NCBI RefSeq assembly: GCF_900187855.1
Contig: NZ_FYEG01000003.1
Coordinates: 124,001-188,000, forward strand
Direction: 5' to 3'
Source: Actinomyces minihominis
GTDB taxonomy: Bacteria; Actinomycetota; Actinomycetes; Actinomycetales; Actinomycetaceae
DNA length: 64,000 nucleotides
The translations under genes were made by a program, and so were the position numbers. Within the stretch, counting starts at the first letter, position 1. Every line of letters starts with the position of its first letter. The notes under the pieces are model-generated. The model was not told the origin of the DNA. It saw only the letters and a program-made list of their open reading frames with translations, and searched no databases. This document shows, piece by piece, positions 26,031-31,436 of the stretch.

Positions 26031-28121
26031 TCACCCCCTGCTGGAGCGCACTCCTTCGAGAAGGCGAGTGATCTGCTCAGCTACCACATCGCCACGAAGC
26101 TGGACCCAAGTACTGGTGAGGTGGTGGGAGTCGCGGTACATGGTAACCACCCCATCATTGGCACGGCACATGTCCCCCTCACAATAGATGTCCGCCAGGT
26201 CCATGAAAGTCACACCCTCGATCTGCGGAACATCGAGATCCTCAAAAGGCCGGTAGAAATCAGCCTTTGAAATGGCGCACTTCTCCAGGGGATTTGATTC
26301 CAGGCACACGGGTGCTAGGTTCCCACCTGCTGGATTATCCCGTAGCCCTAGGACCTGAACCCCGGCGGCAGACAGGGTCTCAAAAGCCTTCGTGTAACCA
26401 TCGGGAATCCACTCTCCACTCATCCGGGCTCGCGTCCCCATGGTCACAACGAGGTCGACGTCCTCATCCAAAAGGGACTGCATGACCTCTTCATTCCACT
26501 CGGCGCAAGTCGAATCCAGTTCAAACTCGGAATCAACATCGCTTGAAAAGAGACAGCTCGATTTAATGTACGTAAGGAGGCGGGCATCTGCCTCCTCTGC
26601 GGCCCTTTCAGCAACCTCAACCCACTGCTGGGAGTGGGATCCCCCGACCACCGCAACGGTTAGGTCCGAGTCTTCATCCCCCCACTCACAGGTGAGTACT
26701 TCGGGCTTCGTAATCTCTTGCACACAGCCCTCCTCGACCACACGTCGGTAGAAGTCATCCTTCGCAATTGAGGGGTGCGGAACAAGGTCGTCGTTGGAGT
26801 TGGCGGGTGTCAGCTCACCCAGGTCCGTAATGGTGATCTGGTCAGAGAGCTTGGCTGCTGCCGCCACGTCGAGGGCGTCCCGGCGGTCCAACTGTCCGGT
26901 CCAGAAGGTAATGGCCATGGCGGGCAGCGCCAAAAGGAGAACCAACACCATCAAAGTGGCGCGCCAGGATCGCGTCAAAACCTTTGACTTCCGAAGCGGG
27001 TCCTCAATCAGCTTGGTTGTCGCCACTGCCAGCACTAGGGCGAGGACGATGATACCCAGTCCTCCGAGCAGGGAGACCTCCGATCCAAACTGGTAGCGGT
27101 ATGCCACAAGAAGGGGCCAGTGCCACAGGTAGAAGGCAAACGAAGAGTCGGCTATCACCAGGACGGGCTTCCACGTCAGCGGCTTGGGCTCGACGCGGTT
27201 CCAAGAAGAAGTGATGATCCCCAGGGCTGCAAGGACCGGGATCAGCGAGAGGTAGCCGGGGAGCAGTCGTGACAGATCCAGAAATGCACCAAGGAGAAGA
27301 AGCGTCAGAAGGCCGAGCCAACCAAGGATCTTCGCAGTTTGCCGGCTGCGGAACTCTCGCCTCATGAGCAGGAAGAGCAGTGCCCCCGCCATGAACTCCC
27401 AGAGTCGGGCAAAGGTGTTGAAGTAGGCCGCAGGCTGGTTGGTTTCAGTGGTGTAGACAGAGTAGGCGAAAGAAACCACAAAGATGGTGCCGCTTAGGAC
27501 AATCAGTGCTCGTCGTGGGTCCCGATCTGAGCCGTGTCGCGCCCGAACCAATGTGACAATCAGCCACGTGGCCAAAGCGAACAGGATGTAAAACTGCACG
27601 TTCACTGCCAGGGCCCAGAACTGCTGGAACGGCGAGGCAGCGTCATCCTGCTGTGCATAGTCGGTTGCGGCACCGATCAACTGCCAGTTCTCGAAGAAAC
27701 CAACCGAGGCCCAGGCCGAACCAAGCGCTGCCCGTTGGGCACTTCGCGGCATCCAGAGGGCTGCGATCATGATGGTTCCGAGGATGACGACGACAGCAGA
27801 GGGAATGACGCGGCGAGCGGTCCTCAGGAGATAGTCACGCAGGCGAAGAGCCAGGTCCCTGAAGCTTGTTGACCTGTGGAATGACCTGTACAAGGATCCC
27901 ACCGCAAAGTAGCCCGCGACGACGAAAAAGACATCGACCCCACCGGAGACCCTGCCAAACCAGATGTGGTAGACCGCAACCAGTAGTGCGGCCACGGTTC
28001 GCAGCCCCTGCACACCAACCAGATAGCGCCTGGGAGCCCCTGTCCCGCTTTGGGATACTGCGGATGCTTTGACCGCCAGATAACCAGACGGTCGAGAGTC
28101 GTGTTGAGCCGGGGTGGCCAT
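26031..28121 (-). CDS. Acyltransferase-3 with C-terminal SGNH domain (OatA-like)
   Basis: 696 residues. Residues 30-400 are the acyltransferase-3 membrane domain with about ten helices and the hallmark RYLVGVQGLRTVAALLVAVY plus DVFFVVAGY at the start. Residues 480-690 form a secreted SGNH-type hydrolase: nucleophile Ser in VVGGSHSQQW near residue 494 and the C-terminal Asp-x2-His in MYRDSHHLTS near residue 664. The architecture O-acetylates cell-wall or surface polysaccharide (OatA of peptidoglycan; others act on exopolysaccharide). A single gene with no glycan cluster in the window. Confidence 0.92.
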   Translation of the reverse strand: MATPAQHDSRPSGYLAVKASAVSQSGTGAPRRYLVGVQGLRTVAALLVAVYHIWFGRVSGGVDVFFVVAGYFAVGSLYRSFHRSTSFRDLALRLRDYLLRTARRVIPSAVVVILGTIMIAALWMPRSAQRAALGSAWASVGFFENWQLIGAATDYAQQDDAASPFQQFWALAVNVQFYILFALATWLIVTLVRARHGSDRDPRRALIVLSGTIFVVSFAYSVYTTETNQPAAYFNTFARLWEFMAGALLFLLMRREFRSRQTAKILGWLGLLTLLLLGAFLDLSRLLPGYLSLIPVLAALGIITSSWNRVEPKPLTWKPVLVIADSSFAFYLWHWPLLVAYRYQFGSEVSLLGGLGIIVLALVLAVATTKLIEDPLRKSKVLTRSWRATLMVLVLLLALPAMAITFWTGQLDRRDALDVAAAAKLSDQITITDLGELTPANSNDDLVPHPSIAKDDFYRRVVEEGCVQEITKPEVLTCEWGDEDSDLTVAVVGGSHSQQWVEVAERAAEEADARLLTYIKSSCLFSSDVDSEFELDSTCAEWNEEVMQSLLDEDVDLVVTMGTRARMSGEWIPDGYTKAFETLSAAGVQVLGLRDNPAGGNLAPVCLESNPLEKCAISKADFYRPFEDLDVPQIEGVTFMDLADIYCEGDMCRANDGVVTMYRDSHHLTSTWVQLRGDVVAEQITRLLEGVRSSRG

Positions 28122-28553
28122 TGAAACTCACTTTCAAATCCTGCGTCACCTACGGAAGCGAACTGGCAACACCGCAATTGGGCGGTACCTTTGTTGCTCC
28201 CCCAGCAGGCTACCGGGCCCCGCTCTGCCAACTCCTCGAACCCCTGTCCCTGTGCGTGAGATCTCGTCAATATGAAGCCTTGAGCTTGAGTTCGGCTCTC
28301 ACTTTGGGCCCCGCGGTCCTCCGGAGGCGCCTTGGTCCTTCACCGGTGCAGATTTAGCCAGATTTGGGTCCCAAATGGCCCCTGCGCAGGACCACCGCAC
28401 CCCCGGAGGACCAAGGCGGCGTAAAGGTAGCGATCTGCTCCCCGTTTTCCCTACGGAACTGCGACTCTATGCTGGTCGCCGACTTCGCATCCCCGCCCGG
28501 CCTAGCAGACCGTCTCTAGCCATGAAACTGACACAAAGGAGTAGAAGGTCGAG
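28122..28553. other. 432-base intergenic region with palindromes
   Basis: No convincing gene. It separates the acyltransferase gene (leftward) from the decayed unit (rightward) and contains the palindrome cluster described at 28315-28418. A ribosome-site-like AAAGGAG lies 18 bases upstream of the ATG at 28554. Otherwise I see no clear promoter, and the long frames here have no sensible protein sequence. Confidence 0.6.
28315..28418. repeat. Cluster of palindromes with two competing long stems
   Basis: Perfect palindromes: CCTCCGGAGG (28318-28327), CACCGGTG (28341-28348), ATTTGGG-T-CCCAAAT (28362-28376) and CCTGCGCAGG (28381-28390). Two longer arms also pair: CGCCTTGGTCCT (28328-28339) with AGGACCAAGGCG (28407-28418), and GGTCCTCCGG (28315-28324) with CCGGAGGACC (28403-28412). 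These share the right arm and so exclude each other. It could be an attenuator-like RNA switch, a recombination site or a DNA-binding array. Confidence 0.7.
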
Positions 28554-29604
28554 ATGGTCAAGACGCCTGATTTCAGCAAAATGAAAGACATCATCGGTGA
28601 TGCGAAAGACGCGGTTGGAAAGGCTGTCGGAAGTGCCGCCGATGTGGTCGAAGTGCCTCTGAGAAGATCGGTTCCCAGATCGATGAGATGAAGTCACAAA
28701 GAGCGCAGAACGCCGCGGAGAAGGAAGCTGCGAAGCAGCCCACCCCTCATGAGTAAGCAGTCATTGAATACAACGACGCCTACATGGAGTTGAACGACGC
28801 AGGAATGCAGCTCTTTGGCCAGCGTGAGCGCACGGTGGATTTGCTCGACTTGATCGAGTTTCTCGTGAACAGCATTGCCCGAACCTCCAAGTCATTCGAC
28901 GCTGATTTCGTCGAAATCAAGACCCACAAGCAGGACTTTAGTTCTCTTACACAGTTCGCCGAAAATGAGCTTGCGACCGTCCGGAAGAGCGCTGTTGGTG
29001 CTGGTGCTGGTGTGGCCACTGGAGCGAGCGTTGCTGCAATCGCCCCGACCGCAGCCATGTGGGTCGCCACCACCTTCGGCACAGCATCCACAGGAGCTGC
29101 TATTTCCTCACTCTCCGGCGCTGCAGAAAAAATGCTGCCCTCGCATGGCTGGGTGGGGGGACCCTCGCCGCAAGCGGTGGCGGAATGGCAGCAGGGTCTG
29201 CATTCCTTGCCCTTGCGGGACCTGTGTGGTGGACTATCGCCGGGGCCACGGTACTCACCTCTGTGGTGGTCATTACCAACACGAAGTTGAGGTCAAAAAA
29301 GGAGAAGGAAAAGGTCCTCTCGGAGGGCAAGAGGAATACCGCGAGCACGGACCGCATGACTGCCAAGGTCGCAGCACTGGCGCAGAAGACTGAAGTACTC
29401 CGTGAGCGTCTTGTCGAGAGCTACGAGGGCTCCCTTCCGACCTTCGGAGAGGACTACGCAGAACTCAGCCGTGATGAGCAGGTCCGACTCGCCTCCCTCG
29501 TCAACAGCGCCAAGGCCTGTTCTGTGCTTCTGAGCGAGCGCTTTGAAGAGAAGTCCGATGAAATATCAGATGACGAGACAGTAGAGGTGCCAGACGGTGA
29601 GTGA
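28554..29604 (+). pseudogene. Decayed gene for a Gly/Ala-rich membrane-inserting protein
   Basis: Coding sense is continuous across three lesions. (1) ATG 28554 (MVKTPDFSKMKDIIGDAKD) shifts frame near 28653; one added base restores SEKIGSQIDEMKSQRAQ. (2) A TAA stop at 28754-28756 interrupts the same frame, which goes on as AVIEYNDAYMELNDAGMQLF from 28757. (3) At 29127-29132 an A6 run breaks the frame; one extra A joins ISSLSGAAEK to NAALAWLGGG. The reconstructed protein has a polar helical N-terminus, a long Gly/Ala membrane segment (GAGAGVATGASVAA to LAGPVWWTIAGATVL) and an acidic coiled-coil tail. Family unnamed. It overlaps the partner gene at 29597 by eight bases. Confidence 0.7.
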
Positions 29605-30323
29605 TGCCGAAAAGCTCATCAAGAGTAACCAAGAGCAAGCAGTCGCCTCATGGATCAACTACCTCAACCAGGTTCGCCTGGATCGTCTTGTCGATGCACT
29701 AACGAAACAGGACATGAACTTGGGTAACGCTCTGTCAAGTGTTCAGGATGCCTTGGAGCAGATTGGCCGAAGCGTCGTCGACGTGAACCGTGGCGGACAG
29801 AAAGGAATGCACGGCTTTATCGCCGAGATCTCGGAAATGGGCATAGGCAACGCCAGGGAACAGATCCTCGGTAAACCCTCCGTGTACGAATGGGTCAATG
29901 ACAACGGGCCTATCGACCTGCTGCGCGACGGCGTCGCCATCCAGCAGAAGTTCGTGGCAGCAGGGGTACGCTACGGTCTCGGCGCAATCTCTGAACACCT
30001 TGACAAGTACCCGGACTTCATCAAAGCAGGGAGTAAGTACCAGATCCCCAGCGACCACTATGCCGTTATCGACCGATGGCTAAACATGTCAGGTGAGGAT
30101 GCCCAGCGGTCCCTGAGCCACAGCGGAGATGGGCCCTCGTATAGAGACTGGCTGCGTGTCCAGGAATTCTTCAAGGAGGGCACAGTACCCGTCGATTCGC
30201 TGGAGCCATCGACCCTCGGGTACGCGCAGGTGCAGCGCGGAACCTACCAGGCAACTCTGGATGGAGAGAAAAAATCGCTACGCGAAACTGACAAATCAAT
30301 ACGCGAAGAAGCGTACCAAGAGA

Positions 30324-30342
30324 GCTGCCCGGGGCTGCCCGG
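30324..30342 (+). repeat. Tandem GCTGCCCGG repeat at the truncation junction
   Basis: GCTGCCCGGG (30324-30333) is followed directly by GCTGCCCGG (30334-30342). It marks the point where the upstream frame stops looking like protein-coding sequence and the lacI promoter begins, so it may be the scar of the rearrangement that brought the cassette in. Confidence 0.5.
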
Positions 30343-30348
30343 TAGAAT
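30343..30348 (+). promoter_or_regulatory. Probable -10 element of the lacI gene
   Basis: TAGAAT at 30343-30348 lies eight bases before the ATG at 30357, so transcription would begin at or next to the start codon. No good ribosome site precedes the ATG. Leaderless messages are common in actinobacteria. The -35 box is unclear. Confidence 0.5.
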
Positions 30349-30356
30349 AGGCATCC

Positions 30357-31436
30357 ATGGAGACACCCCAAGAAGACCTAGCTTCTCGCTCACGCCCATC
30401 AATGAAGGACGTGGCAGAGCTCGCCGGAGTTTCACAACGGACCGTCTCTAATGTCCTTGGTAAATACCCTCACGTCACTCCTTACACTCGAGATCGAGTG
30501 CTGGCCGCAGTCGAGCAACTCGGGTATCGACCCAATATCGCTGCCCAGCAGCTACGGATGGGTGTCACCAAGACAATCGCATTGGTGCTTCCCAATCTCT
30601 CCTGGCCTTACTTTGGCGAGATCGCCCACCTGGTGCAGAAGGAGGCTCAGCGCGCCGGCTATCGACTGTTGATCGCAGAGACCGAAGGCTCTAGAGAACG
30701 TGAGGCCGCTGTCCTCTCGAACCTCGGTACCAATCTGATTGATGGCGTTATCCTCTCCTCAATTGAGTTGGATACAAAGGAACTCGATGACCTTCGGATA
30801 GACGCTCCCCTAGTCCTCCTTGGTGAGATGATTTCTGGCGCAACTCATCCTCACTACACAATCGACAATGTCGAAGCGGCTCGCGAGCTAACCTGGCACC
30901 TCCACAGCCAGGGAGTACGGCGATTCGCTCTCCTGGGTGCCACAGCAACCAAGGCAACTGCCTCGGCTGGTGTGCTTCGTCGAGCAGGGTTTGAGCAGGC
31001 ATTGGTCGAGGCGGGAGTCACGACTTCAGCAGGAACCGCACGGTATGATCATCTCCCCGCCTCACCGTGGACGGCTGAACGAGGGAGAGCCCACGTTGCC
31101 GAATGGGTTCGAAGAAATCCTCTGCCAGACGCGATCGTTGCCCTCAATGACCTACTGGCCGCAGGAGCTTTGCGCGCATTGAGCGACGCGGAAATCAATG
31201 TTCCCGGAGAGGTCCTACTCACGGGATGGGACGGAACAGTAATCTCCAAGTACGCGACCCCATCGATGACTACGGTGTCCCCTAACAAAGCTGCAATCGC
31301 TCAGCACGCGGTGCGGGGGTTGATTTCACTCATTGAAGGCAACCCAACCCCCGCCGGCGACGTCTTTGTCGAACATTCCATCAAGATCCGCGAATCATCA
31401 CTCCCAATCAAAACAGGGAGAGAGTTCCTGGACTGA
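30357..31436 (+). CDS. LacI-family transcriptional regulator
   Basis: 359 residues. N-terminal HTH (residues 16-62): MKDVAELAGVSQRTVSNVL, a hinge helix ending PNIAAQQLRMG, then a periplasmic-binding-type sugar sensor domain (TKTIALVLPNLSWPYF to the end), with the usual ALNDLLAAGALRAL and LTGWDG motifs. It converges on the MBL/MFS/GH2 genes and most probably represses them, with a sugar or sugar phosphate as inducer. Candidate operators lie at 35805-35829 and 33875-33890. Confidence 0.93.
   Translation: METPQEDLASRSRPSMKDVAELAGVSQRTVSNVLGKYPHVTPYTRDRVLAAVEQLGYRPNIAAQQLRMGVTKTIALVLPNLSWPYFGEIAHLVQKEAQRAGYRLLIAETEGSREREAAVLSNLGTNLIDGVILSSIELDTKELDDLRIDAPLVLLGEMISGATHPHYTIDNVEAARELTWHLHSQGVRRFALLGATATKATASAGVLRRAGFEQALVEAGVTTSAGTARYDHLPASPWTAERGRAHVAEWVRRNPLPDAIVALNDLLAAGALRALSDAEINVPGEVLLTGWDGTVISKYATPSMTTVSPNKAAIAQHAVRGLISLIEGNPTPAGDVFVEHSIKIRESSLPIKTGREFLD

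What the first reader, a model, noticed from the sequence alone, without database searches (positions are those of the whole stretch)
28554..30451. Decayed two-gene unit with a Gly/Ala membrane segment
Three separate lesions (near 28653, TAA at 28754, A6 at 29127) break a gene whose reconstructed product has a polar helical N-terminus, a long Gly/Ala membrane segment and an acidic coiled tail; its overlapping partner is truncated. The pair looks like an effector plus partner from an uncharacterised system, possibly a defence or lytic one, now inactivated. Intact homologues elsewhere could be the interesting, undescribed system.
Basis: partly seen in the sequence, partly recalled or inferred. 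Interest (0 to 1): 0.62.

Follow-up and report, generated by a model that had tools for sequence, protein, structure and literature searches.

The report
Broken copy of candidate phage-defence pair
Two overlapping broken genes in this actinobacterial genome are the remains of a mobile two-gene unit that a defence database lists only as an untested anti-phage candidate; intact copies exist in many other bacteria, including inside E. coli defence islands, so the family is worth testing although this copy is dead.

Summary
Gene A (from 28554) is split over three frames, with TAA at 28754 and a frame break at the A6 run 29127-29132. Gene B (29597) loses its family match after residue 247 of about 486, and its frame then runs into a LacI gene. 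A also departs from the family at 9 of 67 otherwise invariant positions, against 0-3 in intact relatives, so decay is likelier than assembly error; reads were not available.

The pair is PADLOC candidate system PDC-M09 (A 6e-53 and 2e-53; B 5e-114). No paper in the library names it, and Pfam, NCBIfam and PHROGs give no credible match. Intact A-B pairs are patchy, on plasmids and islands of four bacterial phyla. In E. coli they follow a WYL regulator and share an island with Dsr1 and Olokun genes. No match appeared in 50,697 phage genomes, against a lysis cassette.

Likely mechanism (inferred): B is a membrane-anchored nuclease-like protein (invariant H, E, D, QxK; glycine-zipper membrane domain). 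A is a coiled coil around a charge-free Gly/Ala membrane insert. Together they would act against incoming DNA or the infected cell. The window copy is a dead member of a known candidate family.

The parts
28535..28541 (+). Shine-Dalgarno-like AAAGGAG, 12 nt before the ATG of gene A
   Evidence: read directly in the sequence
28554..28652 (+). gene A, first piece (variable N-terminus), frame 1
   Evidence: N-termini of the family vary, so this piece is placed by position and frame only
28655..28756 (+). gene A, second piece in another frame, closed by TAA 28754-28756
28757..29132 (+). gene A, third piece: first coiled-coil helices and first half of the Gly/Ala segment; ends at the A6 run
   Evidence: PDC-M09A profile 61-183, 5.8e-53
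29127..29132 (+). A6 run where the frame of gene A breaks
29128..29604 (+). gene A, fourth piece: second half of the Gly/Ala segment, second coiled coil, stop TGA 29602-29604
   Evidence: PDC-M09A profile 186-328, 1.5e-53
29597..30337 (+). gene B stump: N-terminal nuclease-like domain with HGFIAE (72-77), D107, IQQKF (115-119) and IPSDH (150-154) all kept
   Evidence: PDC-M09B 1-247 of 486, 5e-114; motif positions
30338..30451 (+). unrelated tail of the B frame after the loss of its membrane half; reads across the start of the LacI gene
   Evidence: no family match after residue 247; C-terminal half absent from the genome
30357..31436 (+). intact LacI-type regulator, right-hand boundary, not part of the system
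   Evidence: assignment from sequence by eye
26031..28121 (-). intact membrane acyltransferase-like gene (OafA type), left-hand boundary, not part of the system
   Evidence: assignment from sequence by eye

Best explanation
The window holds a dead copy of a horizontally mobile two-gene unit, PADLOC candidate PDC-M09. SHOWN: gene A is interrupted by frame breaks and a stop, gene B has lost its membrane half, and intact A-B pairs with the same overlap exist in distant bacteria. INFERRED for the intact system: it is an anti-phage (or anti-mobile-element) defence unit. B combines an N-terminal nuclease-like domain of PD-(D/E)XK type (variant E...D...QxK) with a C-terminal glycine-zipper membrane domain. 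A is a pair of long coiled-coil arms around a charge-free Gly/Ala membrane insert. A would hold or open a membrane complex with B, and on infection B would cut nucleic acid at the membrane (incoming phage DNA, or host DNA in an abortive response). The cost of a membrane-active nuclease would explain why copies are often broken. Confidence by step: broken PDC-M09 pair 0.95; defence role of the family 0.7; nuclease-type N-domain 0.6; 'A and B form one membrane complex that acts through B' 0.4.
For: Family and decay. A-B linkage: every full-length B found (about 25 loci) has A directly upstream on the same strand, with start/stop spacing of -8 to +13 nt in the nine relatives measured; one genome (L090) has a diverged A-like region fused in frame to B. 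Defence context: in E. coli the pair starts 34 bp after a WYL regulator (such regulators co-localise with defence systems: PMC9122601) in a tRNA-Thr/integrase island with Dsr1, OloA and OloB matches; Curtobacterium copies adjoin a NERD-UvrD gene; a Rhodococcus plasmid remnant adjoins a type I restriction system. Patchy, mobile distribution: 5 of 5426 E. coli genomes, 4 of 396 sampled genomes of the window's phylum including its own, one of them full length, 6 full length in 296 of one class, plasmids of Klebsiella, Lactococcus, Rhodococcus, Curtobacterium and Leptolyngbya. Nuclease reading: G66, H72, G73, I75, E77, D107, Q116, K118, F119 invariant in 16 diverse B; predicted order helix 68-90, strands 97-99, 108-110, 113-117, helix 129-137, strand 147-150; related proteins keep the membrane module behind another E...D...QxK N-domain, or in L039 an HNH-like motif seen by eye. 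A: two confident coiled coils flanking a low-confidence Gly/Ala insert.
Against: No experiment on the family was found, so defence rests on association and a candidate list. The E. coli defence-island context is one island type in a handful of strains; Klebsiella copies lie beside the tellurite (ter) operon. The N-domain gives no Pfam or PDB sequence match and Foldseek returned no nuclease; the QxK variant may be inactive. The membrane-domain fold match (Tim17/NDUFA11 type, best Z 7.5) is below the level that is safe for helical models. A complex of A and B was not modelled. The E...D...QxK pattern alone would also fit a nucleic-acid-binding domain without catalysis.
Confidence: 0.6

Rival explanations
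1. The frame breaks are sequencing or assembly errors and gene A is intact in the organism.
For: One break lies at an A6 homopolymer; the assembly is a draft in 24 contigs; no reads available.
Against: Three separate lesions in one gene, together with loss of about 240 residues of B that exist nowhere else in the genome, and 9 departures at invariant positions of A against 0-3 in intact relatives; both neighbouring genes are open over their full length.
Confidence: 0.06
2. Phage lysis cassette (holin-like A plus partner) left by a prophage.
For: Gly/Ala membrane segment in A; nine IMG/VR contigs carry A-type genes, most with a B gene behind.
Against: No match to A or B in 50,697 phage genomes; carried on plasmids and integrative islands; B carries no cell-wall hydrolase match.
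Confidence: 0.04
3. Plasmid-maintenance or conjugation-related membrane system (entry exclusion, toxin-antitoxin) and not anti-phage defence.
For: Often on plasmids, beside ter in Klebsiella; two overlapping genes resemble a toxin-antitoxin layout.
Against: Also in chromosomal defence islands; neither protein looks like a small antitoxin; hosts range from Actinomycetota to Cyanobacteriota without a shared plasmid type.
Confidence: 0.17
4. The B stump is still expressed and useful as a soluble nuclease-like fragment after loss of its membrane half; only A is dead.
For: The stump keeps all motif residues and shows no excess of departures (3/50); two other copies (L090, ending near residue 240; L009, near 263) end at about the same domain border.
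Against: Its own translation signals are uncertain once A is broken; L009 has lost its motif histidine and looks dead; three cases could be coincidence.
Confidence: 0.12
5. A acts alone as a pore-forming effector of the ClyA type and B's N-domain only senses nucleic acid.
For: Foldseek's best hit for A is the ClyA protomer (E 0.21), with SmhB and AhlC pore proteins also near the top; A is broken while the B stump is not.
Against: Hits are far from significant and Z is at most 4.3 for these proteins; any two long helices with a hydrophobic tip would score so.
Confidence: 0.25

Closest known systems
PDC-M09 (PADLOC-DB candidate system, genes M09A and M09B)
   Same: Both gene families, their order and overlap
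   Different: This copy is broken: A interrupted, B cut after residue 247. The published system is itself only a computational candidate; papers describe PDCs as mostly unvalidated (PMC12988326)
PD-(D/E)XK nuclease superfamily
   Same: Order of predicted secondary structure and an invariant E...D...QxK pattern in the B N-domain
   Different: Glutamine in place of the usual acidic residue; no sequence or fold match found
Tim17/Tim22/Tim23 and NDUFA11 membrane fold
   Same: The B membrane domain gives this family as a block of top structural hits (Z up to 7.5, rmsd 3.2, 119 residues)
   Different: Below a safe threshold for helical models; no Pfam match; attached to a nuclease-like domain
ClyA-type alpha pore-forming proteins
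   Same: A: long helices with a hydrophobic insert between them
   Different: No significant score (E 0.21); no sequence relation
LeoBC (PADLOC)
   Same: Weak match to the C-terminal membrane and coil part of A (0.0005-0.002)
   Different: No GTPase domain in A; probably a shared type of Gly/Ala membrane segment

Membership tests
PDC-M09 (PADLOC) | M09A protein | tested here: met
   two pieces match consecutive parts of the profile, 5.8e-53 and 1.5e-53
PDC-M09 (PADLOC) | M09B protein | tested here: met
   5e-114 over 1-247 of 486
PDC-M09 (PADLOC) | A directly followed by B, same strand | tested here: met
   8-nt overlap as in relatives
PDC-M09 (PADLOC) | both genes complete, so a working system | tested here: not met
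   A broken, B lacks its membrane half
PDC-M09 (PADLOC) | protects against phage | not testable with these tools
   no assay; no paper in the library names it
PD-(D/E)XK nuclease (B N-domain) | alpha-beta-beta-beta-alpha-beta core | tested here: inconclusive
   order fits in the model; no coordinates compared for this domain alone
PD-(D/E)XK nuclease (B N-domain) | conserved acidic residues and (D/E)xK | tested here: inconclusive
   E77, D107, Q116, K118 invariant in 16 sequences, but Q replaces D/E
PD-(D/E)XK nuclease (B N-domain) | sequence-profile relation to a known member | tested here: inconclusive
   no Pfam or PDB match
PD-(D/E)XK nuclease (B N-domain) | nuclease activity | not testable with these tools
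   needs an assay
Tim17/22/23-type membrane fold (B C-domain of relatives; lost in the window) | four-helix glycine-zipper fold | tested here: inconclusive
   top 19 rows are this family, Z 6.5-7.5; below a safe threshold
ClyA-type alpha pore-forming protein (A) | fold match | tested here: inconclusive
   best Foldseek hit E 0.21; Z 4.0-4.3
Phage lysis cassette | occurs in phage genomes | tested here: not met
   no match to A or B in 50,697 phage records

The most novel reading that the evidence does not exclude
The intact family is a modular, membrane-anchored nuclease defence: one glycine-zipper membrane module carries interchangeable nuclease-like N-domains (QxK-type in M09B and its relatives, HNH-like in L039), or none (L091, L092), and in most cases works with a partner that inserts a charge-free Gly/Ala hairpin into the membrane, so that foreign DNA is met and cut at the membrane. 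The window shows a broken end product of this.
Probability: 0.3. Interest if true: 0.75.

Novelty: new member of a known kind. Interest (0 to 1): 0.4.

Why it matters
The copy in the window is only a relic, but it points to a family that spans at least four phyla, sits beside known defence genes in E. coli, has no described mechanism, and shows swapped N-terminal domains on a shared membrane module. If the nuclease-at-the-membrane reading is right, it would be a compact two-gene way to stop phage DNA at entry, and the E. coli version can be tested directly in a laboratory strain.

Tried and rejected
Pfam, NCBIfam and PHROGs on the window pieces, and Pfam on 19 A and 17 B relatives, gave no credible family; weak PHROG tape-measure hits to A and the PF10247 (Romo1) hit to single B members reflect glycine-zipper composition. 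Separate searches with the B N-domain and C-domain found nothing credible. PDB sequence profiles gave only chance coiled-coil hits. Same-genus genomes do not share the flanks well enough to show an empty site. The paper on plasmid pDRC3A does not discuss the pair.

Full report
CHECK OF THE OBSERVATION. The frame opened by ATG 28554 is left between about 28650 and 28659; the following frame holds TAA at 28754-28756; a further frame break lies at the A6 run 29127-29132. The two long pieces match consecutive stretches of one protein family (profile positions 61-183 and 186-328), so they are remains of one gene. Gene B begins at GTG 29597 inside the end of A, with the same 8-nt overlap as in five intact relatives from Actinomycetota and Lactococcus. 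Its family match stops at residue 247 of about 486; the rest of the frame reads across the start of an intact LacI-type gene. Nothing of the missing half is elsewhere in the genome, and there is no second copy of A or B.

DECAY OR ARTEFACT. The 3' loss in B cannot be a base-calling error. In gene A the window copy departs from the family at 9 of 67 columns that all other compared actinobacterial sequences share, including P>S, A>E, G>S and G>W; intact relatives depart at 0-3, and the Serinicoccus copy, which has a TGA at a conserved tryptophan, at 6. The B stump departs at 3 of 50, which is ordinary. So A has been decaying for some time, whereas the stump has not visibly done so. Reads were not available. 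I put no base back; all searches used the pieces apart.

WHAT IT IS. PADLOC names the pair PDC-M09. PDC stands for putative (phage) defence candidate, from a 'guilt-by-embedding' prediction; most are unvalidated (PMC12988326; PMC11514479). No paper in the library names M09. No credible Pfam, NCBIfam or PHROG family covers either protein.

INTACT RELATIVES. Full pairs are on plasmids of Curtobacterium, Rhodococcus fascians, Lactococcus, Klebsiella and Leptolyngbya, on E. coli chromosomes (5 of 5426 genomes), in one other genus of the window's own family (L002), in six of 296 genomes of another actinobacterial class, and on IMG/VR contigs. Every full-length B found has A directly upstream. The distribution is patchy: 4 of 396 sampled genomes of the phylum match, the window's own included, and one of them is full length. 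Broken copies recur: Serinicoccus A with a nonsense codon (L004), a Rhodococcus plasmid with only a middle piece of B (L009), G699 with B cut near residue 240 (L090), Klebsiella grimontii-type plasmids with an A remnant, and E. coli plasmids with only the last residues of B beside an IS5-family remnant and the ter operon.

DEFENCE CONTEXT. In E. coli PSJ-29 and Z226-5 the pair begins 34 bp after a WYL-domain regulator in an island bounded by an integrase and tRNA-Thr near proA; the same island holds matches to Dsr1 (9e-86), OloA (3e-77) and OloB (5e-58). WYL regulators are known to co-localise with defence systems and islands (PMC9122601). Two Curtobacterium copies adjoin a NERD-UvrD gene. In Klebsiella the pair is next to the tellurite operon. 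Together with the candidate listing this makes defence the best reading, but it remains association.

ANATOMY AND MECHANISM. B: residues G66, H72, G73, I75, E77, D107, Q116, K118 and F119 are invariant in 16 diverse sequences. The model (mean pLDDT 81.6) gives helix 68-90, strands 97-99, 108-110 and 113-117, helix 129-137 and strand 147-150. This is the order of a PD-(D/E)XK core, with E77 in the first helix, D107 at the second strand and QxK in the third. From residue 245 follow long helices with glycine zippers; the best structural neighbours form one block, Tim17 and NDUFA11 (Z up to 7.5, rmsd 3.2, 119 residues), which is suggestive only. The same membrane module occurs behind other N-domains: E...D...QxK variants in L016, L075, L076, L078 and in the 840-aa neighbour in E. 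coli, and an HNH-like DH...N...N motif in L039 (by eye; Pfam does not confirm it). In L091 and L092 an intact A is followed by the membrane half alone. In L023 and L024 A follows a different protein whose last residues resemble the B tail. A: two confident coiled-coil arms (residues 54-142 and 242-320) enclose a low-confidence Gly/Ala insert that in L005 holds no charged residue from 141 to 235. I infer that A and B form a membrane complex and that B's N-domain acts on nucleic acid. Whether it cuts phage DNA at entry or host DNA in an abortive response is open, as is the rival that A is the effector.

NOVELTY. The window feature is a broken member of a known candidate family. What is added here is the reading of B as a nuclease-like domain on a shared membrane module, its domain swaps, the island context, and the repeated breakage of copies. 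Three truncated B genes (window 247, L090 about 240, L009 about 263) end near the border between the two halves; this may be chance or may mean that the membrane half is the costly part.

Noticed in passing
window 28307-28420: Imperfect inverted repeat (arms of 35 nt, 77% complementary) upstream of gene A; similar sequences at two other places of the genome (C2:425921-426025 and C23:254263-254303), so perhaps a small dispersed repeat.
   Followed up: partly
L018:17355-19877 (E. coli PSJ-29): 840-aa uncharacterised protein directly after the intact pair, with weak similarity to both halves of B (GFAAE...ADRLVNGSEIQTKYC and a glycine zipper); may be a third component or a paralogue.
   Followed up: partly
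L091:9494-11377 and L092:8289-10171: Intact A followed by a short protein that has only the membrane half of B; a variant without the nuclease-like domain.
   Followed up: partly
L058:15-1605 and L059:4245-6783: A with a C-terminal extension preceded by another partner protein whose last residues resemble the B tail; upstream instead of downstream of A.
   Followed up: partly
L090:9517-11082: One ORF joins an A-like region without the usual Gly/Ala core to the B N-domain, then stops near B residue 240; a different protein follows.
   Followed up: partly
L040-L054: A short GQ(A/V)(L/I)IPVPxxGAxxG glycine zipper of B recurs in unrelated long proteins of viral contigs, several of which look like tail tape-measure proteins.
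   Followed up: no
L012, L101, L103 (Klebsiella plasmids), L019 (E. coli plasmid): Intact or truncated pairs lie between mobile elements and the tellurite (ter) operon; E. coli ter plasmids keep only the last part of B or the sequence after it.
   Followed up: partly
window 29597-30337: The B stump keeps all motif residues and shows no excess of substitutions although A is dead.
   Followed up: partly
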